Part shown: in pieces, positions 7,279 to 34,811 of the stretch | Numbering within the stretch: the stretch's first letter is position 1 | Layout: every line of letters starts with the position of its first letter | Position numbers and translations under genes: made by a program | NCBI GenBank assembly: GCA_949298805.1 | Contig: CASFXY010000016.1 | Span: 1 to 36,755, forward strand | DNA from: an uncultured bacterium | Lineage (GTDB): Bacteria; Cyanobacteriota; Vampirovibrionia; Gastranaerophilales; Gastranaerophilaceae | DNA: 36,755 bases | Direction: 5' to 3' | Notes under the pieces: model-generated | The model's input: only the letters and a program-made list of their open reading frames with translations | What the model was told of the DNA's origin: nothing | The model's database searches: none

Positions 7279-8889
7279 ATGGCAAAAGTATTAATTACGG
7301 ATAAAATAAACGAAGCTGCCGTTAAAATTGTTGAAAAAGCAGCACATGTAGACAATCTTCCCACAATGGAAGAAGATGAATTATGCAAAATTATTGGTGA
7401 ATATGATGCGCTTTTAGTAAGAAGTCAAACAAAAGTTACGGAAAAAATAATAGAAGCCGGAAAAAATCTTAAAATAATCGGAAGGGCAGGAGTTGGTGTA
7501 GATAATATTAATCTTGATGCGGCAACTGCAAAAGGTATTATTGTTGTAAATTCACCCGACGGTAATACAAATGCTGCTGCTGAACACACTGTCGCAATGA
7601 TGTTGGCAATGGCCCGTAACATTCCCGAAGCAGTAAAATCCGTTAAAGAGGGAAAGTGGGAACGCTCGAAGTTTACCGGAGTTGAAGTTTTTGGCAAAAC
7701 ATTGGGCATAATAGGACTTGGCAAAATAGGTCATCACGTTGCTGAAGTTGCCCTTGCCCTTGGTATGAAAATTGTTGTATTTGACCCGTATACTTCGCGC
7801 GAAGCAGTTGAGAATATGGGTGCAAAATATATTGAACATCTTGACGATTTTTGGGGTCAATGTGATTTTATTACAATTCATACACCTAAAACAAAAGAAA
7901 CAACTTCCTTAATTAATAAAAATACAATTAACAGAATGAAAAAAGGCATAAGAATAGTTAATTGTGCCAGAGGCGGTATTATTGATGAAATAGCTCTCAA
8001 AGAAGCCCTTGAATCAGGTCAAGTAGCTTCATGCGCTCTTGATGTCTATGAAGATGAAAAGAATATTCAAGACAATGTACTTTTGGAATTTGGTAAAAAC
8101 GTAATACTTACTCCACACTTGGGTGCAAGTACGGATGAAGCACAAATTAATGTTGCTCTTGATGTTGCAAATCAAGTTGTATCAGTGCTTTCAGGAGGCG
8201 ATGCAACAAGCGCGGTAAATATTCCATCGCTAAAACCGCAAAAACTTGAACCCGTCAAAGACTACATGCCAATAGCAGAAAATATTGCTCAAATGGCATC
8301 ACAAATTTCAAAAGGAAATTTAAAATCTATTGAAATAGAGGTCAAAGGAACACTTGCGCAACTTGATACATCGCCGCTTGAAACCGCAATATTAAAGGGT
8401 GTTTTATCAAGTAATATAACAGGTGTAAATTATGTAAATGCGCCACTTCTGGCTAAAAAACGCGGAATAGATATTTTAACGAAAAAGTCGCAACAATCTA
8501 CGGACTACATTGGTTCAATCTCTGTAAATTTAAATACCGACAGCGGATGTACAAGCGTTTCCGGTGCATTAATTGCAAAACATATAAAAAGAATTGTTAA
8601 GATTAACGATTACAATACTTCAATAAAACCGGAAAAACACATGTTGCTGGTACCACATGAAAATAAACCAGGCATGATTGCAGCTGTTGCAACTGTCTTA
8701 GGCGATGATGGAGTAAATATTTCACGTATGCAAGTTGCTCAAAAATCGTATGCAAAAGGCGAAGCAAGAGTGGATGAAAAGAGCATTATGATTATAAATA
8801 CTGATGACAAAGTTGAGCAAAACACTCTTGATAAAATCGCCAAAATCAATGGAATATACGAATCAAACTATATAAGACTAAATGTTTAA
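7279..8889 (+). CDS. serA: D-3-phosphoglycerate dehydrogenase
   Basis: SerA oxidises 3-phosphoglycerate to 3-phosphohydroxypyruvate, the first step of serine synthesis. At 536 residues it is the long form. It has a catalytic and NAD-binding domain with GLGKIG at 146-151, NCARGGIIDE near 235-244 and HLGAST near 278. An intervening ASB-type domain covers about 320-450. A C-terminal ACT domain (about 454-536, HENKPGMIAAVATVLGDDG) is the usual serine-sensing module. It is the last gene of the operon; a terminator follows at 8912. Confidence 0.97.
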   Translation: MAKVLITDKINEAAVKIVEKAAHVDNLPTMEEDELCKIIGEYDALLVRSQTKVTEKIIEAGKNLKIIGRAGVGVDNINLDAATAKGIIVVNSPDGNTNAAAEHTVAMMLAMARNIPEAVKSVKEGKWERSKFTGVEVFGKTLGIIGLGKIGHHVAEVALALGMKIVVFDPYTSREAVENMGAKYIEHLDDFWGQCDFITIHTPKTKETTSLINKNTINRMKKGIRIVNCARGGIIDEIALKEALESGQVASCALDVYEDEKNIQDNVLLEFGKNVILTPHLGASTDEAQINVALDVANQVVSVLSGGDATSAVNIPSLKPQKLEPVKDYMPIAENIAQMASQISKGNLKSIEIEVKGTLAQLDTSPLETAILKGVLSSNITGVNYVNAPLLAKKRGIDILTKKSQQSTDYIGSISVNLNTDSGCTSVSGALIAKHIKRIVKINDYNTSIKPEKHMLLVPHENKPGMIAAVATVLGDDGVNISRMQVAQKSYAKGEARVDEKSIMIINTDDKVEQNTLDKIAKINGIYESNYIRLNV

Positions 8890-8987: not shown

Positions 8988-9485
8988 ATGTCAATGAACA
9001 GTGTTTACGGATATTCTTACAATCCTTATGCGTATAATAACGCATATATGAATTCTACAAATTTTCAAGGCAGCACAACAAATTCAACTCAAAAAGAAGA
9101 AGGAAATGCACTTGGTACAATTGCTGCAATTGGTGCAGGAGTAGCCGCAGTTGGAACTGCAATTTATGCAGTTAAAAAAGGTAAGAGCATAAACGGGGCA
9201 GATTCTTCAATTTTTAAAAACTTAAAAACCGGTTTAAGCGAAATAGGCAAAACAATTACCAAAAAAATCGGAAGTATTTTTGGAAAAAAATCAAACGCAA
9301 ATGAAGATTTAACAAAAGCCGCGGAAGAAATAATAAAAACCAGTAAAGCGCCATATTCAAACGAAGCTTTTAACAATGCAGTAACAAACTACAAAGATAT
9401 CATCATAGAAAAAGGTAACAAAATCTGGGAAGAAATATCAAGTCCTACATATAGGGTAAATTATGACCAGTTTTTAGGCCGCTAA
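8988..9485 (+). CDS. lineage-type small membrane-anchored protein, paralogue 1
   Basis: Function not recognised. The 165-residue product starts with a Tyr/Asn-rich stretch (SVYGYSYNPYAYNNAYMN) containing NFQGS at about 25-29. A Gly/Ala-rich hydrophobic segment (about 42-63, LGTIAAIGAGVAAVGTAIYA) is followed by a basic VKKGK. The next part, NLKTGLSEIGKTITKKIGSIFGKK, lines up with NLKTGVVSIF in the 9685 product and KLKEGFKSFFGE in the 10671 product. The same order (FG/FQG motif, hydrophobic segment, basic KRG/KKG, amphipathic helix) makes the three likely paralogues. GGAAGGAAGG precedes the ATG; a terminator follows directly. Confidence 0.75.
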   Translation: MSMNSVYGYSYNPYAYNNAYMNSTNFQGSTTNSTQKEEGNALGTIAAIGAGVAAVGTAIYAVKKGKSINGADSSIFKNLKTGLSEIGKTITKKIGSIFGKKSNANEDLTKAAEEIIKTSKAPYSNEAFNNAVTNYKDIIIEKGNKIWEEISSPTYRVNYDQFLGR

Positions 9486-9501
9486 AAAATTAACTAAATT
9501 C

Positions 9502-9541
9502 AGCATAAAAACTCTCAAAATCTTTTGAGAGTTTTTATGCT
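9502..9541 (+). terminator. long terminator hairpin whose right arm runs into the next promoter
   Basis: Bases 9502-9520 and 9523-9541 form a perfect 19-bp inverted repeat (AGCATAAAAACTCTCAAAA and its complement) with a 2-base centre. The GAGAG part is followed by TTTTT. The end of the right arm (TATGCT) is also the start of TGCTATAAT, the extended -10 of the 9685 gene. Confidence 0.85.
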
Positions 9542-9546
9542 ATAAT
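9538..9546 (+). promoter_or_regulatory. extended -10 (TGCTATAAT) for the 9685 gene
   Basis: TGC plus perfect TATAAT overlaps the terminator's right arm. The predicted transcript has a leader of about 130 bases, part of which is repeated before the next gene. Confidence 0.65.
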
Positions 9547-9604
9547 TAAACACAAGTTAGGTTTTAGATGTTACAATTTTATATAACTAGTTAAAATTAA
9601 ATAC

Positions 9605-9652
9605 AAAAGCGGTAGCAATTTTAATTATTTACATGATTTATAGTATCAGAAG
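9605..9652 (+). repeat. conserved leader block, copy A
   Basis: These 48 bases (beginning AAAAGCGGTAGCAATTTTAA) match 10591-10638 with one mismatch (T9644 against C10630). The offset to the downstream ATG is identical in both copies (986 bases apart). Similarity continues through the ribosome binding site (AAGGGAAATTAT) and about 31 codons. Confidence 0.9.
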
Positions 9653-9684
9653 AAAAATTGATGATATTTGGGAAGGGAAATTAT

Positions 9685-10470
9685 ATGCAAGTTAACGGTA
9701 TTAAATCTTACAGTACACCACATGTAACTTTTGGCAACAACGACTCAACAGAAAAAAAACAAATTAACAAAAAAGCACTTATTGCGGCAGGTGCAGGTGC
9801 TGCAGCAATTGCAGTCGGCACAATCTATAGTGTAAAAAGAGGCAAAAAAATTAATACCGCAGGACTTACAAAAGAACTGATAAAACAAGATGATAGCTTG
9901 AAAGGGCTTAAGGGCTTATGGGGGAACCTAAAAACAGGCGTTGTATCAATCTTTACAAAAACAGGCAGAAAAGAATATAAATATTCAAAAAGTGTAGCAA
10001 AATCAATAAATGTACTTGAAGCGGCTAGTGAAAATAAATTAACCCAAGAAATGACAGAGAGATTAACACAAAACGCAGCAAAAAGCAAAGCTGTAAGGCA
10101 AATCAAAACCGGAAGAGTTGCACTTGCATCGTTATACGATGATGCAGGCAACAGATTAACAGGCGAAGCACTTGAAAATGCAAAAAAACTTCGTAAAGCG
10201 GAATTTGCAAAAGCAGTAGAAGAAGCCAAAAAAACTTTAACCGAAGAAGATATTGCGCAACAAGCAATATCAGAAGCATTTCATCCTGCCACAAAACTCG
10301 GCTTGCTCAGAGCTGCAAAATCTATGCTAGATGAAATTAAAAAAGGCAACACTCCGGACGCACAAACTATAGAAGAATTTTTTAACGGCACAAATCTTGT
10401 AAATAAAATTATAAACGATGACAAAGTGGACATGGAAACATTAAAATTCATTTTAGAAAAATTAATTTAA
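9685..10470 (+). CDS. lineage-type small membrane-anchored protein, paralogue 2
   Basis: Function not recognised. I use the ATG at 9685 (MQVNGIKSYSTPHVTFGNND) because GGGAAGGGAAATTAT precedes it. The first ~31 residues nearly match those of the 10671 product; an upstream TTG frame would read through the conserved ribosome binding site. The 261-residue product has the VTFGNN motif at about 14-19 and KKQINKKA. A hydrophobic Gly/Ala segment (about 32-50) is followed by VKRGKK, then by a long Lys/Glu/Ala-rich, probably helical C-terminal region of about 200 residues without Cys. It is terminated by the hairpin at 10492. Confidence 0.75.
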   Translation: MQVNGIKSYSTPHVTFGNNDSTEKKQINKKALIAAGAGAAAIAVGTIYSVKRGKKINTAGLTKELIKQDDSLKGLKGLWGNLKTGVVSIFTKTGRKEYKYSKSVAKSINVLEAASENKLTQEMTERLTQNAAKSKAVRQIKTGRVALASLYDDAGNRLTGEALENAKKLRKAEFAKAVEEAKKTLTEEDIAQQAISEAFHPATKLGLLRAAKSMLDEIKKGNTPDAQTIEEFFNGTNLVNKIINDDKVDMETLKFILEKLI

Positions 10471-10491
10471 TTAATAAAATATAAAAATATT

Positions 10492-10524
10492 AAATCTCCG
10501 AGCACTTCCCTCGGAGATTTTTTT
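10492..10524 (+). terminator. intrinsic terminator after the 9685 gene
   Basis: AAATCTCCGAG at 10492-10502 pairs with CTCGGAGATTT at 10510-10520 (11 bp), with T's to 10524. The extended -10 of the next gene starts two bases later. Confidence 0.9.
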
Positions 10525-10525
10525 A

Positions 10526-10534
10526 TGGTAAAAT
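10526..10534 (+). promoter_or_regulatory. extended -10 (TGGTAAAAT) for the 10671 gene
   Basis: It has the same position relative to the terminator and the same leader as the 9538 promoter. The nearby AGTTAGGT is also shared with the 9685 leader, supporting a common origin. Confidence 0.6.
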
Positions 10535-10590
10535 AAATACGAGTTAGGTAATATTTTTATTAAGTTATGTAACAAATTAAAATAAAATAT

Positions 10591-10638
10591 AAAAGCGGTA
10601 GCAATTTTAATTATTTACATGATTTATAGCATCAGAAG
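10591..10638 (+). repeat. conserved leader block, copy B
   Basis: Second copy of the 9605-9652 block, 47 of 48 bases identical by eye. It lies at the same distance from the start codon as copy A. Confidence 0.9.
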
Positions 10639-10670
10639 GAAAGTTGATAATACTTGGAAAGGGAAATTAT

Positions 10671-11141
10671 ATGCAAGTTAACGGTATTAAATCTTACAGC
10701 GCACCACATGTAGCTTTTGGCAACAACGATTCAACAGAAAAAAAACAAATTAACAAAAAAGCTGTTGCAGCAGGTGTTGGTATTGCAGCTGCAGCTATAG
10801 GTACAACTGCTTATGCCCTAAAACGCGGTGGCGCAGTAAGTGAAGATGGTGCAAAATTCTTCACAAAATTAAAAGAAGGCTTCAAATCATTCTTTGGTGA
10901 AAATCGCGTTAAATACTTAGAAACAGTTAAAGCAAATCTTGATGATTTAATTGCAAACGGCAAAAAAGGCAAAGATGGCGCAATTGAAGAATTAAGCAAA
11001 GAAGCTAAAGAAGCAGCAACCAAAAAATCTCAAAAAATTGCTGACAAAATAAAAGACTTAAAAGATGCAATAGCTAAAAAAGCTGAAAAGGCTGCACAAG
11101 GTGCACAAAAAGCAGGCGAACAAGCAGCTGAAACAGTTTAG
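10671..11141 (+). CDS. lineage-type small membrane-anchored protein, paralogue 3
   Basis: Function not recognised. The ATG at 10671 is chosen by the ribosome binding site and by alignment with the 9685 gene; a TTG at 10644 in frame is unlikely. The first 31 residues differ from paralogue 2 at two positions (S11/A, T15/A), and the DNA is nearly identical there. After that only the layout is shared: Gly/Ala hydrophobic segment, LKRGG, then FFTKLKEGFKSFFGENR. The last ~80 residues are Lys/Ala/Glu-rich (KKAEKAAQGAQKAGEQAAE), like an amphipathic helix or coiled coil. The product is 156 residues and a terminator follows. Confidence 0.75.
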   Translation: MQVNGIKSYSAPHVAFGNNDSTEKKQINKKAVAAGVGIAAAAIGTTAYALKRGGAVSEDGAKFFTKLKEGFKSFFGENRVKYLETVKANLDDLIANGKKGKDGAIEELSKEAKEAATKKSQKIADKIKDLKDAIAKKAEKAAQGAQKAGEQAAETV

Positions 11142-11160
11142 AATTATACAATAAAATCAA

Positions 11161-11194
11161 TAATAAAACCTCACTTAAAAGTGAGGTTTTATTA
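11161..11194 (+). terminator. terminator after the 10671 gene
   Basis: A 15-bp perfect stem (11161-11175 with 11180-11194, core AAAACCTCACT) has a TAAA loop. The right arm contains TTTT but no long T-run directly follows. A second small hairpin, TGCAAATTTTTGCA, lies just after it. Confidence 0.8.
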
Positions 11195-11218
11195 TGCAAA
11201 TTTTTGCAAAAAAAATAC

Positions 11219-11238: not shown

Positions 11239-12036
11239 ATGATAAACATTAAAAAGACATTGTTCTGGCAGTTTTTAAATCTGCTTGAATATGAGTTAAA
11301 GGAGTTTTTGATTACTCTTGGCAATATTGGCAAGGATTTTGCAAGAGTAATAAAATCTATGCTGGCTTTAAAGCTGGATAAAGGTGCACTTGTACAACAG
11401 TGCTCAAGATTTTCAATAGATTCATTGCCAATAACTCTTACAATTGTAGCTATGACTTCAATTATCATTGCTATGCAAATTGCACCGGAACTTGCAAAAC
11501 AAGGTGCAGGGAACTATGTAGGTTCATTATCCGCACTTGTAATGGTAAGAGAATTGTCGGCAATAATGTCAGGTTTTGCAATTATTTCAATGATAGGTTC
11601 TTCTTATGCTTCAGAAATTGCCTCAATGGCGGTAACCGAACAAATAAGCGCTATGAAAGTACTTCGGGTAGACCCTGTTGAATACTTAATAGTGCCAAGA
11701 TTTTTATCAGGAATCATAATGATGCCTTTTGTGGTTGTTATTTCAACTTTTTGCGGACTTGTATGCGCTGCGGTAATCTCTAATTTAACTGCAGAAATTA
11801 CATATTTGAATTTTATAACTTCCATGTGGCATGGACTTTTTATAAAAGATATTTTTGTAGCTTTGTTAAAATCATCTTTTTTTGGTGGCACAATAGCAAT
11901 AATCAGTTGTTCATGCGGATATTCAACACGCGGAGGTGCGCTTGAAGTAGGCACTTCTACCACACGTGCCGTCGTATGGTCATTTGTTGCTATAGCAATA
12001 TGGGACTATATTTTTGCGTCGATATTTTATCTGTAA
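11239..12036 (+). CDS. mlaE: MlaE-type ABC transporter permease
   Basis: MlaE is the inner-membrane permease of the MCE lipid transporter that moves phospholipids between inner and outer membranes. The 265-residue protein has about five hydrophobic segments and the family landmarks VRELSAIMSGFAIISMIGSS (about 95-115), AMKVLRVDPVEYLIVPR and TRAVVWSFVAIAIWDY near the C-terminus. The ATPase gene starts 9 bases after its stop and the MCE protein follows. MlaB, MlaC and MlaA are not in the window. Confidence 0.93.
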   Translation: MINIKKTLFWQFLNLLEYELKEFLITLGNIGKDFARVIKSMLALKLDKGALVQQCSRFSIDSLPITLTIVAMTSIIIAMQIAPELAKQGAGNYVGSLSALVMVRELSAIMSGFAIISMIGSSYASEIASMAVTEQISAMKVLRVDPVEYLIVPRFLSGIIMMPFVVVISTFCGLVCAAVISNLTAEITYLNFITSMWHGLFIKDIFVALLKSSFFGGTIAIISCSCGYSTRGGALEVGTSTTRAVVWSFVAIAIWDYIFASIFYL

Positions 12037-33942: not shown

Positions 33943-34082
33943 TTTAAATTTATTTTTTATTAATAATTCGATTATGTAAAGTTTTGTTTCAAAACAAAGA
34001 AAAAATGCCAAAAAACATTAAAGAAAGAGTAAAAATTGCCGAAAAAAATACTACGGGAACAATAAAGTAAGGAGTGACCCTT

Positions 34083-34811
34083 ATGGGAATGTCCGCCAGC
34101 CAGGCAAGATTTTTAATTTTAACGGCACAAAAAAGCAACAATGAGTATCAGGCACAGCGAATTACTCATGAACGCTTAATGCTTGCGCAGGAAACAGAAA
34201 ATTGGACAATGGAATATAATGACAAAATGAACAATACGACCCTTTTGTTCAATGCAAAAACTGCCGCAGATACAGATTTATATAATTATAACCGTAAACT
34301 TGTCTATGACGACATTGTACGTTCCGAATTGGACGAAAATCCGGGTCTTGGCGGAAGATTAGTAACAACATCAGGAAAAGTTGTCGTACCAAAATTACCC
34401 GAATTTGACGAAAATGGTCTTTCGGCTGATGGCTTGAGGGAAAATCAATACTTTGTAGACCCTGAAATCGAAAGAGCAGACATGCTGCAAAATGCCTTAA
34501 CCGAAGGTATCTACTTTATAGAACTTTTAAAATATACGGGGGATCCTGACGAAGGCAATGTTTCCTGGGAAAAAGTTAACTATGCAAACACATCGGAAAC
34601 TCTCATTTCGGAAGTTCTTGATAAAACGGACGATGCAGCTGCAGAGGCAGAATATGAAGAAAGACAAAATTTATTTCAAAATAAAGATAAAATGCTTGAA
34701 TTAAGATTAAAACAACTTGAATCAGAGCATAAAGCCCTTGAAACCGAAATAGAAAGCGTTCAAAAGGTAATTCAAAATAACGTTGAAACTTCATTTAAAA
34801 CATTCGGATAA
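34083..34811 (+). CDS. lineage-type protein beginning MGMSASQAR, coiled-coil C-terminus
   Basis: Function not recognised. I chose ATG 34083 with AAGGAG 9 bases upstream (a GTG at 34074 in frame overlaps that site). The 242-residue product starts MGMSASQARFLILTAQKSNN and continues with long helical, Gln/Glu/Asn-rich stretches. The middle (ENPGLGGRLVTTSGKVVVPKLPEF) is less regular. The last ~50 residues (KMLELRLKQLESEHKALETE, then VETSFKTFG) have clear heptads. There are no Cys, signal peptide or membrane segment. From memory, proteins with this N-terminus occur in several copies in gut Melainabacteria. Transcribed alone, ending at a bidirectional terminator. Confidence 0.8.
   Translation: MGMSASQARFLILTAQKSNNEYQAQRITHERLMLAQETENWTMEYNDKMNNTTLLFNAKTAADTDLYNYNRKLVYDDIVRSELDENPGLGGRLVTTSGKVVVPKLPEFDENGLSADGLRENQYFVDPEIERADMLQNALTEGIYFIELLKYTGDPDEGNVSWEKVNYANTSETLISEVLDKTDDAAAEAEYEERQNLFQNKDKMLELRLKQLESEHKALETEIESVQKVIQNNVETSFKTFG

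What the first reader, a model, noticed from the sequence alone, without database searches (positions are those of the whole stretch)
9538..11141. Duplicated promoter, leader and N-terminus joined to different C-termini
The 9685 and 10671 genes share a terminator-extended -10 layout and a leader with a 48-base block differing at one position. They also share the ribosome binding site and about 31 codons (two amino-acid changes). After that the proteins share only layout. Conservation of non-coding leader and signal-like N-terminus with diverged bodies suggests a mobile or recombining 5' cassette, or a leader RNA and N-terminal tag that are both functional (localisation or regulated expression).
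Basis: partly seen in the sequence, partly recalled or inferred. Interest (0 to 1): 0.72.

Follow-up and report, generated by a model that had tools for sequence, protein, structure and literature searches.

The report
Shared promoter-and-tag module, swapped bodies
Two neighbouring genes of an uncultured gut bacterium share the same start region, most likely because recombination joined one gene's promoter region and N-terminal tag to another gene's body, and a short element of that start region recurs in related bacteria in front of many otherwise unrelated genes.

Summary
In detail: 9579-9807 and 10565-10793 are 87% identical, and identity collapses after codon 31. Same-genus records are titled Candidatus Gastranaerophilales.

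All 15 genus genomes hold a serA-[slot 1]-[slot 2]-mlaE locus. Both 5' types occur with both the alpha and the beta body. Gene 9685 carries a beta body (61% identical to G014 slot 1) behind a slot-2 leader and N-terminus: a recombinant, not a decayed duplicate.

The leader shows no conserved RNA fold. It holds a 27-nt, strand-specific, promoter-like element (9615-9641, 10601-10627), found with up to 2 mismatches in 42 of 58 genomes searched (27 of 43 outside the genus); the reversed pattern in none. Of 68 genes with the element, 57 have it 20-48 nt before the start. Their products are enriched for a short N-terminal F-x-G-type tag, replicated outside the genus.

Elements also cluster at a second flagellar-type export operon with its own FliF and FlhA. 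Best reading: terminal reassortment within a lineage-specific regulon. Boldest reading: the tag is an export signal. Promoter function and export are inferred, not shown.

The parts
8988..9485 (+). slot-1 paralogue: N1-type N-terminus (MSMN..NFQG), Gly/Ala helix, alpha body; no element upstream
9501..9542 (.). hairpin between slot 1 and gene A (inverted repeat; terminator-like on the minus strand)
9536..9546 (+). extended -10-like TATGCTATAAT upstream of gene A
   Evidence: read; promoter function not shown
9555..9562 (+). AGTTAGGT block; the corresponding block upstream of the last slot-2 gene averages 86% pairwise identity over 15 genomes
9615..9641 (+). 27-nt element, gene A copy (GCAATTTT..ACATG.TTTAT), 43 nt upstream of the start codon
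9642..9684 (+). conserved purine-rich 5' UTR with ribosome binding site, gene A; no conserved fold found
9685..10470 (+). gene A, 261 aa: slot-2-type N-terminus joined to a beta body (recombinant)
9685..9777 (+). shared N-terminal 31 codons, gene A
9778..9834 (+). Gly/Ala-rich, membrane-compatible helix, residues 32-50; region in which identity to gene B is lost and, from about residue 51, similarity to slot-1 beta genes is high
10492..10520 (+). terminator-like hairpin after gene A
10524..10534 (+). extended -10-like TATGGTAAAAT upstream of gene B
   Evidence: read
10542..10549 (+). AGTTAGGT block upstream of gene B
10601..10627 (+). 27-nt element, gene B copy, 43 nt upstream of the start codon
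10628..10670 (+). conserved 5' UTR, gene B (80% mean pairwise identity over 15 genomes)
10671..11141 (+). gene B, 156 aa: slot-2-type N-terminus, Gly/Ala helix, gamma body
11160..11195 (+). terminator-like hairpin after gene B

Best explanation
The shared block is a conserved expression-and-targeting module: a promoter-like element, a short 5' UTR without conserved fold but with a ribosome binding site, and an N-terminal tag. It belongs to a regulon found in much of this order. Shown: the element recurs in a narrow range of short distances before many unrelated genes and is strand-specific; the products are enriched for an F-x-G-type tag near the N-terminus; at the serA-mlaE locus bodies have been exchanged between two 5' types. 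Inferred: gene 9685 arose by one unequal homologous crossover in the DNA for the Gly/Ala-rich helix that all these paralogues share. An array [N1-alpha][N2-gamma] crossing its slot 2 with slot 1 of an array [N1-beta][N2-gamma] gives exactly [N1-alpha][N2-beta][N2-gamma], as seen in the window; the mirror event gives the three-gene array of G011. Inferred: the element is the promoter of an alternative sigma factor, and the module is conserved because it sets when and where the variable bodies are made or sent, while the bodies diversify.
For: Leader and N-terminus found in 13 of 15 genus genomes by DNA search; protein relatives in 15 of 15 genus genomes and 0 of 43 outside. Same synteny in 15 of 15. 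Body groups at E<=1e-6 (32 genes): alpha 11 N1 + 2 N2; beta 4 N1 + 1 N2 (gene A); gamma/delta 13 N2; one N2 alone: all four N1/N2 x alpha/beta combinations exist. Gene A body 61% identical to G014 slot 1; identity to B ends after codon 31. UTR 80%, codons 1-10 81%, codons 11-25 51%, serA fourfold sites 52.5%. Element: 33 matches in 15 genus genomes, reversed pattern 0; 42 of 58 genomes, reversed 0 of 58; 57 of 68 genes with it have it 20-48 nt before the start; its best-scoring position is 37-48 nt before the start in 17 of 17 slot-2 leaders, 12 of 17 over 12 bits, 0 of 15 slot-1 leaders. Tag, by gene family: 10 of 18 with the element against 20 of 96 without (loose), 6 of 18 against 2 of 96 (strict); outside the genus, same expressions, by gene: 14 of 28 against 35 of 205 and 5 of 28 against 4 of 205. 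Second case: two same-strand G010 genes of one cluster with leaders 99%, first 60 residues 97%, bodies 33% identical.
Against: No transcript start, sigma factor or protein localisation is known. The tag is short and absent from many element-bearing families (8 of 18 by the loose test, 12 of 18 by the strict one), among them proteins with what look by eye like Sec signal peptides. 28% of genes without the element also meet the loose expression (74 of 262). The element score is weak in 5 of 17 slot-2 leaders (-1.4 to 9.1 bits), and 16 of 58 genomes gave no match, the one genome of another order among them. A second promoter-like site (extended -10 plus AGTTAGGT) lies upstream of slot-2 genes. 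At E<=1e-4 single linkage merges the beta and gamma/delta body groups, so a very ancient common origin of the bodies is not excluded. The parental arrays of the crossover were not found.
Confidence: 0.72

Rival explanations
1. Plain recent tandem duplication of one gene, followed by fast decay of the C-terminal part.
For: The two copies are adjacent and 87-93% identical over the 5' block.
Against: The body of gene A is 61, 51 and 44% identical to slot-1 genes of G014, G010 and G013, whose N-termini are of the other type, and 13% to gene B; the identity change is abrupt after codon 31.
Confidence: 0.04
2. Gene conversion copied only the leader and N-terminus of gene B onto an older middle gene, instead of one unequal crossover making the three-gene array.
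For: Gives the same present-day sequence; conversion tracts of a few hundred bases are ordinary (general knowledge).
Against: Needs a pre-existing middle gene with a beta body; no three-gene array with an N1-beta middle gene was seen among 15 genomes, only two of which have three genes.
Confidence: 0.22
3. The leader is a structured regulatory RNA (riboswitch or thermosensor) kept for its fold.
For: It is strongly conserved non-coding sequence.
Against: Consensus folding energy -0.91 against -0.30 +/- 0.60 for column shuffles, reached by 14 of 100; 3 Rfam matches at E 0.23-0.89, all below the gathering scores; the part shared with other genes is a 27-nt two-box string, not a helix.
Confidence: 0.05
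4. The N-terminal tag is a type III export signal, and the element drives a second flagellar-type export apparatus together with its substrates.
For: FlhA/SctV family in 15 of 15 genus genomes, at least three matches each; two FliF in 14 of 15; operon tag gene-SLT-FliE-FliF2-unknown-FliH-FlhA2; from SLT to FlhA2 in 11 of 11 loci, tag gene in 10 of 11, element over 12 bits before the tag gene in 8 of 10; 18 sites over 12 bits in 146 kb around this operon, reversed control 0, against none outside slot 2 in 173 kb of serA-mlaE loci and window.
Against: No secretion evidence; many element genes lie far from the operon; some products look Sec-exported; the elements before the operon's tag gene are weak (13.5-21.3 bits) and G009 and G011 show none over 12 bits; some other element genes near the operon (both in G004, the one in G012) show no clear tag; outside the genus the FliF2-FlhA2 cluster was in only 1 of 20 element loci, about 4 kb away on the other strand.
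Confidence: 0.3
5. The element is an ordinary FliA (sigma-28) promoter and the regulon is late flagellar genes.
For: A FliA/WhiG-family sigma factor passes the family's curated cut-off; total length 27 nt resembles the sigma-28 layout (recalled).
Against: Four orthologous flagellin genes lack it (best upstream scores -15.7 to -1.4; other flagellin copies not examined), as does the fliP-fliR-flhB-flhA locus (no site over 9 bits); the -10-like part does not resemble GCCGATAA (recalled).
Confidence: 0.1

Closest known systems
Terminal reassortment of type III effector genes (recalled; papers holding the term listed, none read)
   Same: A promoter plus N-terminal targeting region is found joined to different C-terminal bodies by recombination; the donor body exists elsewhere with another 5' end.
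   Different: Here the parts are tandem paralogues at one syntenic locus, exchange seems to go through a shared Gly/Ala helix, and secretion by a type III route is not shown.
Cassette exchange between tandem paralogues (antigenic-variation type loci; recalled)
   Same: Conserved 5' end, variable 3' bodies, recombination between neighbours, copy number of 2 or 3.
   Different: Variation seen between species genomes, not within a clone; no silent-copy store seen in the serA-mlaE interval.
Alternative-sigma-factor regulons with a short two-box promoter
   Same: Narrow range of distances, strand-specific, close to the start codon, heterogeneous genes.
   Different: The sigma factor is not identified; the consensus GCAATTTT..TT(Y)ACATGTTTTAT matched no promoter consensus that I recall; no motif library was searched.
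Flagellar gene sets of Gastranaerophilales (PMC3787301, PMC4040986; passages shown)
   Same: FliP, FliR, FlhB, FlhA and flagellin are present in this genus.
   Different: A second FliF/FliE/FliH/FlhA set in one operon with a lytic-transglycosylase-domain gene and a tag gene; the passages shown do not mention it. PMC4040986 says that 3 of 9 Gastranaerophilales genomes had complete flagellar gene sets, the rest only a subset.

Membership tests
Terminal reassortment | Two genes share promoter region and N-terminus but not the body | tested here: met
Terminal reassortment | The body occurs elsewhere with a different 5' end | tested here: met
   beta body with N1 in 4 genomes, with N2 in the window
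Terminal reassortment | The shared N-terminus is a secretion signal | not testable with these tools
   only genomic linkage of element and tag genes with a second export operon
Plain tandem duplication | Homology runs through the whole gene | tested here: not met
Mobile 5' cassette | Cassette found at different genomic places | tested here: not met
   long leader matches only at this locus in the own genome; slot-2 genes in the serA-mlaE interval in 15 of 15 genomes; only the short element occurs elsewhere
Structured leader RNA / riboswitch | Conserved secondary structure | tested here: not met
   Rfam
Sigma-factor regulon | Common element at short, narrow distance from starts, strand-specific | tested here: met
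Sigma-factor regulon | Known cognate sigma factor | tested here: inconclusive
   8 PF04542 matches in the own genome; types; none can be assigned
FliA regulon | Element upstream of flagellin genes | tested here: not met
   (4 orthologous flagellin loci)
Flagellar-type III export system (second set) | FliF/SctJ, FliE, FliH, FlhA/SctV homologues in one operon | tested here: met
Flagellar-type III export system (second set) | Own FliP/FliQ/FliR/FlhB and ATPase | not tested
   one fliP-fliR-flhB-flhA locus was seen (L242); second copies and an ATPase were not searched for
Known Pfam/NCBIfam family of genes A and B | Match over the curated cut-off | tested here: not met

The most novel reading that the evidence does not exclude
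Gastranaerophilales carry a second, flagellum-derived type III export apparatus (FliF2/FliE/FliH/FlhA2 with its own lytic transglycosylase), expressed from a dedicated order-wide promoter, and a fast-evolving set of substrates recognised by a short N-terminal F-x-G tag. New substrates are made by joining the promoter-plus-tag module to new bodies, as caught in the act at window 9538-11141. This would also offer another reading of the 'incomplete' flagellar gene sets reported for several members of the order.
Probability: 0.28. Interest if true: 0.85.

Novelty: new variant of a known kind. Interest (0 to 1): 0.62.

Why it matters
It turns a local oddity into a handle on a regulon of mostly unannotated proteins in an uncultured gut order: one short element finds the genes, and the tag and the linked export operon suggest where the products may go. 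It is also a clear natural case of promoter-plus-N-terminus modules being joined to new bodies. If the tag is an export signal, these non-photosynthetic relatives of cyanobacteria have a protein export route that my paper searches did not find described.

Tried and rejected
Leader as RNA structure: consensus folding gave no signal; Rfam gave three sub-threshold matches, judged chance. Structure prediction: gene A mean pLDDT 65.9 with residues 1-88 under 50, gene B 56.0; Foldseek of A against the PDB gave 0 matches at E<=0.001, so no function was read from folds. Short leader matches elsewhere in the own genome: of the six that came as loci (L003-L008) four were read; those inside a reverse transcriptase gene (L006) and inside coding sequence (L005, L007) were dismissed as chance; the stretch near aroA (L008; gene name recalled) turned out to hold the element (L099). 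Pfam/NCBIfam on the slot genes: only sub-threshold matches. FliA as the regulator: not supported. SigF-like gene near one element gene in 5 of 5 genomes looked at: noted, too weak to assign. PMC9380563 (abstract and passages): another structure linked to flagellar export; the passages do not mention this operon type. Papers on an element, tag or second export set in this lineage: the searches listed nothing that I recognised as describing them. One search found 0 papers; of the others some show only the top of their lists (8-15 rows of up to 98 papers), and I saw titles, abstract starts and the passages named.

Counting notes; 429 gene calls (simple start rule), 335 after removing identical starts; genes starting within the first 130 nt of a stretch were dropped; 68 over 14 bits, 262 under 8, 5 in between left out (all five begin like slot-2 or other tagged proteins); a family counts as 'with element' if at least half its members have it, so the slot-gene family (11 of 30) counts as without. 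P values are two-sided and one-sided. A third, wider expression made up after seeing the data gave 11 of 28 against 34 of 205; 100 distinct element instances, 62 after removing near-identical ones, 51 used for model R2; the 11 left out are two aroA-adjacent, four slot-2, one adhesin-upstream and one VKISA-type copy, and three weak or opposite-strand sites. One search counts L170 and L171, which are orthologues, separately; 52 matches at E<=2 in the own genome, 21 looked at, of which 13 had an open frame starting in the scanned stretch downstream.
Full report
What is there. Window 9579-9807 and 10565-10793 are 87% identical. The 48-base block 9605-9652 has one mismatch (9644), the first 31 codons have two amino-acid changes, and identity in 20-nt windows falls from 0.85-1.0 to 0.45 after codon 31. 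A third paralogue lies upstream at 8988-9485. In the 1.68-Mb own genome no other long match to the leader exists.

Where it lives. Records with the same locus, from same-genus genomes, are titled Candidatus Gastranaerophilales (4 of 7), Candidatus Galligastranaerophilus intestinavium (1 of 7) or uncultured bacterium (2 of 7). The leader DNA was found in 13 of 15 genomes of the genus; protein relatives in 15 of 15 in the genus and 0 of 43 outside it. In all 15 the genes lie between orthologues of the window's 7279-8889 and 11239-12036, which I call serA and mlaE (names recalled): two genes in 13 genomes, three in the window's genome and in G011.

How the genes are built. Each of the 32 genes has an N-terminal stretch of 27-58 residues, one Gly/Ala-rich helix (best 19-residue hydropathy 1.59-2.06), a K/R- or H-G-K-containing stretch and a body. 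There are two 5' types. N1 (slot 1, MS[ML]N...) has no element (0 of 15). N2 (slot 2, M[QR]VN...) has the conserved leader. Bodies grouped by BLASTP at E<=1e-6 give alpha (11 with N1, 2 with N2), beta (4 with N1, 1 with N2 = gene A) and gamma/delta (13, N2 only), with G009_2 alone; at E<=1e-4 beta and gamma/delta merge. All four combinations of N1/N2 with alpha/beta exist, so exchange between 5' ends and bodies is the simplest account. Gene A is closest to G014 slot 1 (61% over 205 residues of the body), while its first 31 residues match gene B in 29 of 31. One unequal crossover in the helix codons would explain both three-gene arrays (inference).

What the leader is. Across 15 genomes (one slot-2 gene each) the 43-nt UTR averages 80% pairwise identity, the first ten codons 81%, codons 11-25 51%, the element 73%, an AGTTAGGT block further up 86%; yardsticks are serA fourfold-degenerate sites, 52.5%, and the 75 nt upstream of slot 1, 66%. 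No consensus fold stands out and no Rfam family matches over its gathering score. Short matches elsewhere led to a 27-nt element. The pattern GCAATTTTNNTNNTTTACATGNTTTAT with up to two mismatches gave 33 matches in 15 genus genomes, 0 for the reversed pattern. The pattern GCAATTTTNNTNNTTYACATGTTTTAT with up to two mismatches was found in 42 of 58 genomes (27 of 43 outside the genus; 0 of 1 from another order), reversed 0 of 58. Of 68 genes with a site over 14 bits, 57 have it 20-48 nt before the chosen start, 5 closer and 6 further; one group next to an aroA-like gene has it 6 nt before a likely start. In 17 of 17 slot-2 leaders the best-scoring position is 37-48 nt before the start, over 12 bits in 12. 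That geometry suggests a core promoter. In the own genome a 51-instance profile gave 52 matches at E<=2; of the first 21, looked at, 13 stand before an open reading frame.

What the element stands in front of. The genes are heterogeneous: lytic transglycosylase (SLT) domains (L212, L159), alpha-amylase (L179), 5'-nucleotidase (L210), TPR (L215, L145), HEAT repeats (L141), a filamentous-haemagglutinin-type adhesin (L151) and many without any family over cut-off. Many products begin with a short tag, such as MKISAINL...ISFKG or MINKINNSINFKG. By gene, a loose tag expression was met by 48 of 68 genes with the element and 74 of 262 without. By family it was 10 of 18 against 20 of 96 (p 0.006), and for a strict expression 6 of 18 against 2 of 96 (p 0.00016). 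The same two expressions on loci outside the genus gave 14 of 28 against 35 of 205 (p 0.00025) and 5 of 28 against 4 of 205 (p 0.0016). So the tag is enriched, not universal.

A second case. In G010 seven same-strand genes of one 13-kb stretch each have an element match. Two of them share 99% of the 75-nt leader and 97% of the first 60 residues but 33% of the body after residue 100.

A link to export. The genus is flagellated by gene content (flagellin in 15 of 15) but has at least three FlhA-family matches per genome and two FliF in 14 of 15 (one in G007, whose assembly is 77% complete). The second set is an operon: tag gene, SLT-domain gene, FliE, FliF2, an unnamed gene, FliH, FlhA2. FlhA2 falls below the FlhA cut-off (690 against 772 bits) while the canonical one passes (840). 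From SLT to FlhA2 the operon was found in 11 of 11 loci examined, the tag gene in 10 of 11 (not G003), and an element over 12 bits in front of it in 8 of 10 (not G009, G011). Further element genes lie upstream of it in G008 (2), G003 (3), G004 (2), G012 (1) and G001 (1); an F-x-G-type or FGS tag is evident in G008, G003 and G001 but not in the G004 and G012 genes. In 146 kb around this operon there are 18 sites over 12 bits and 0 in the reversed control. In 173 kb of serA-mlaE loci and window there are 12 sites, equal to the 12 slot-2 leaders over that score. The canonical fliP-fliR-flhB-flhA locus has none over 9 bits, and 4 orthologous flagellin genes have none. Outside the genus, 1 of 20 element loci contained FliF2, the unnamed gene, FliH and FlhA2, about 4 kb from the element gene and on the other strand. 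The third FlhA-family protein matches only the C-terminal half of the family profile.

Reading. Shown: shared leader and N-terminus, mix-and-match bodies, no conserved RNA fold found, a strand-specific element in most genomes of the order that were searched, tag enrichment, linkage of elements to a second export operon in the genus. Inferred: promoter activity, an unidentified alternative sigma factor, unequal crossover as the mechanism, and (least certain) the tag as a type III export signal. Terminal reassortment of type III effectors is the nearest known process (recalled). Earlier work reports flagella in some members of the order and only partial flagellar gene sets in others (PMC3787301 and PMC4040986, passages); the passages shown do not mention the second set.

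Noticed in passing
G000:C18, L244:3684-5126 (-): A third FlhA-family protein that matches only the C-terminal half of the FlhA profile, with a counterpart in 15 of 15 genus genomes; it could be a docking or chaperone protein.
   Followed up: partly
G000:C13, L243:664-8893 (+): Second flagellar-type export operon (tag gene, SLT, FliE, FliF2, unnamed, FliH, FlhA2), apart from the canonical flagellar genes elsewhere.
   Followed up: yes
G010:C13:6500-19500 (L130): Seven same-strand genes, each with the element; two have near-identical leader and N-terminus with diverged bodies; five of the seven end in a related string such as YELTxxGWQKIEE, and one has a sub-threshold MORN match.
   Followed up: partly
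G000:C21, L006:154-1689: A reverse-transcriptase-like gene preceded by a short gene, resembling a diversity-generating retroelement pair (naming recalled, not tested).
   Followed up: no
window 34074-34811: Protein beginning MTLMGMSASQARFLILTAQKSNNEYQ with no Pfam match; I recall similar starts in other proteins of this lineage.
   Followed up: no
G001:C60, L138:593-1564: Tagged protein behind the element with a borderline PARP catalytic-domain match (26.0 bits against a cut-off of 26.7).
   Followed up: no
G000:C6, L199 and orthologous loci L195-L198: A SigF-like sigma factor and a prepilin-peptidase-like gene (latter name recalled) lie near an element-tag gene in 5 of 5 genomes looked at.
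   Followed up: partly
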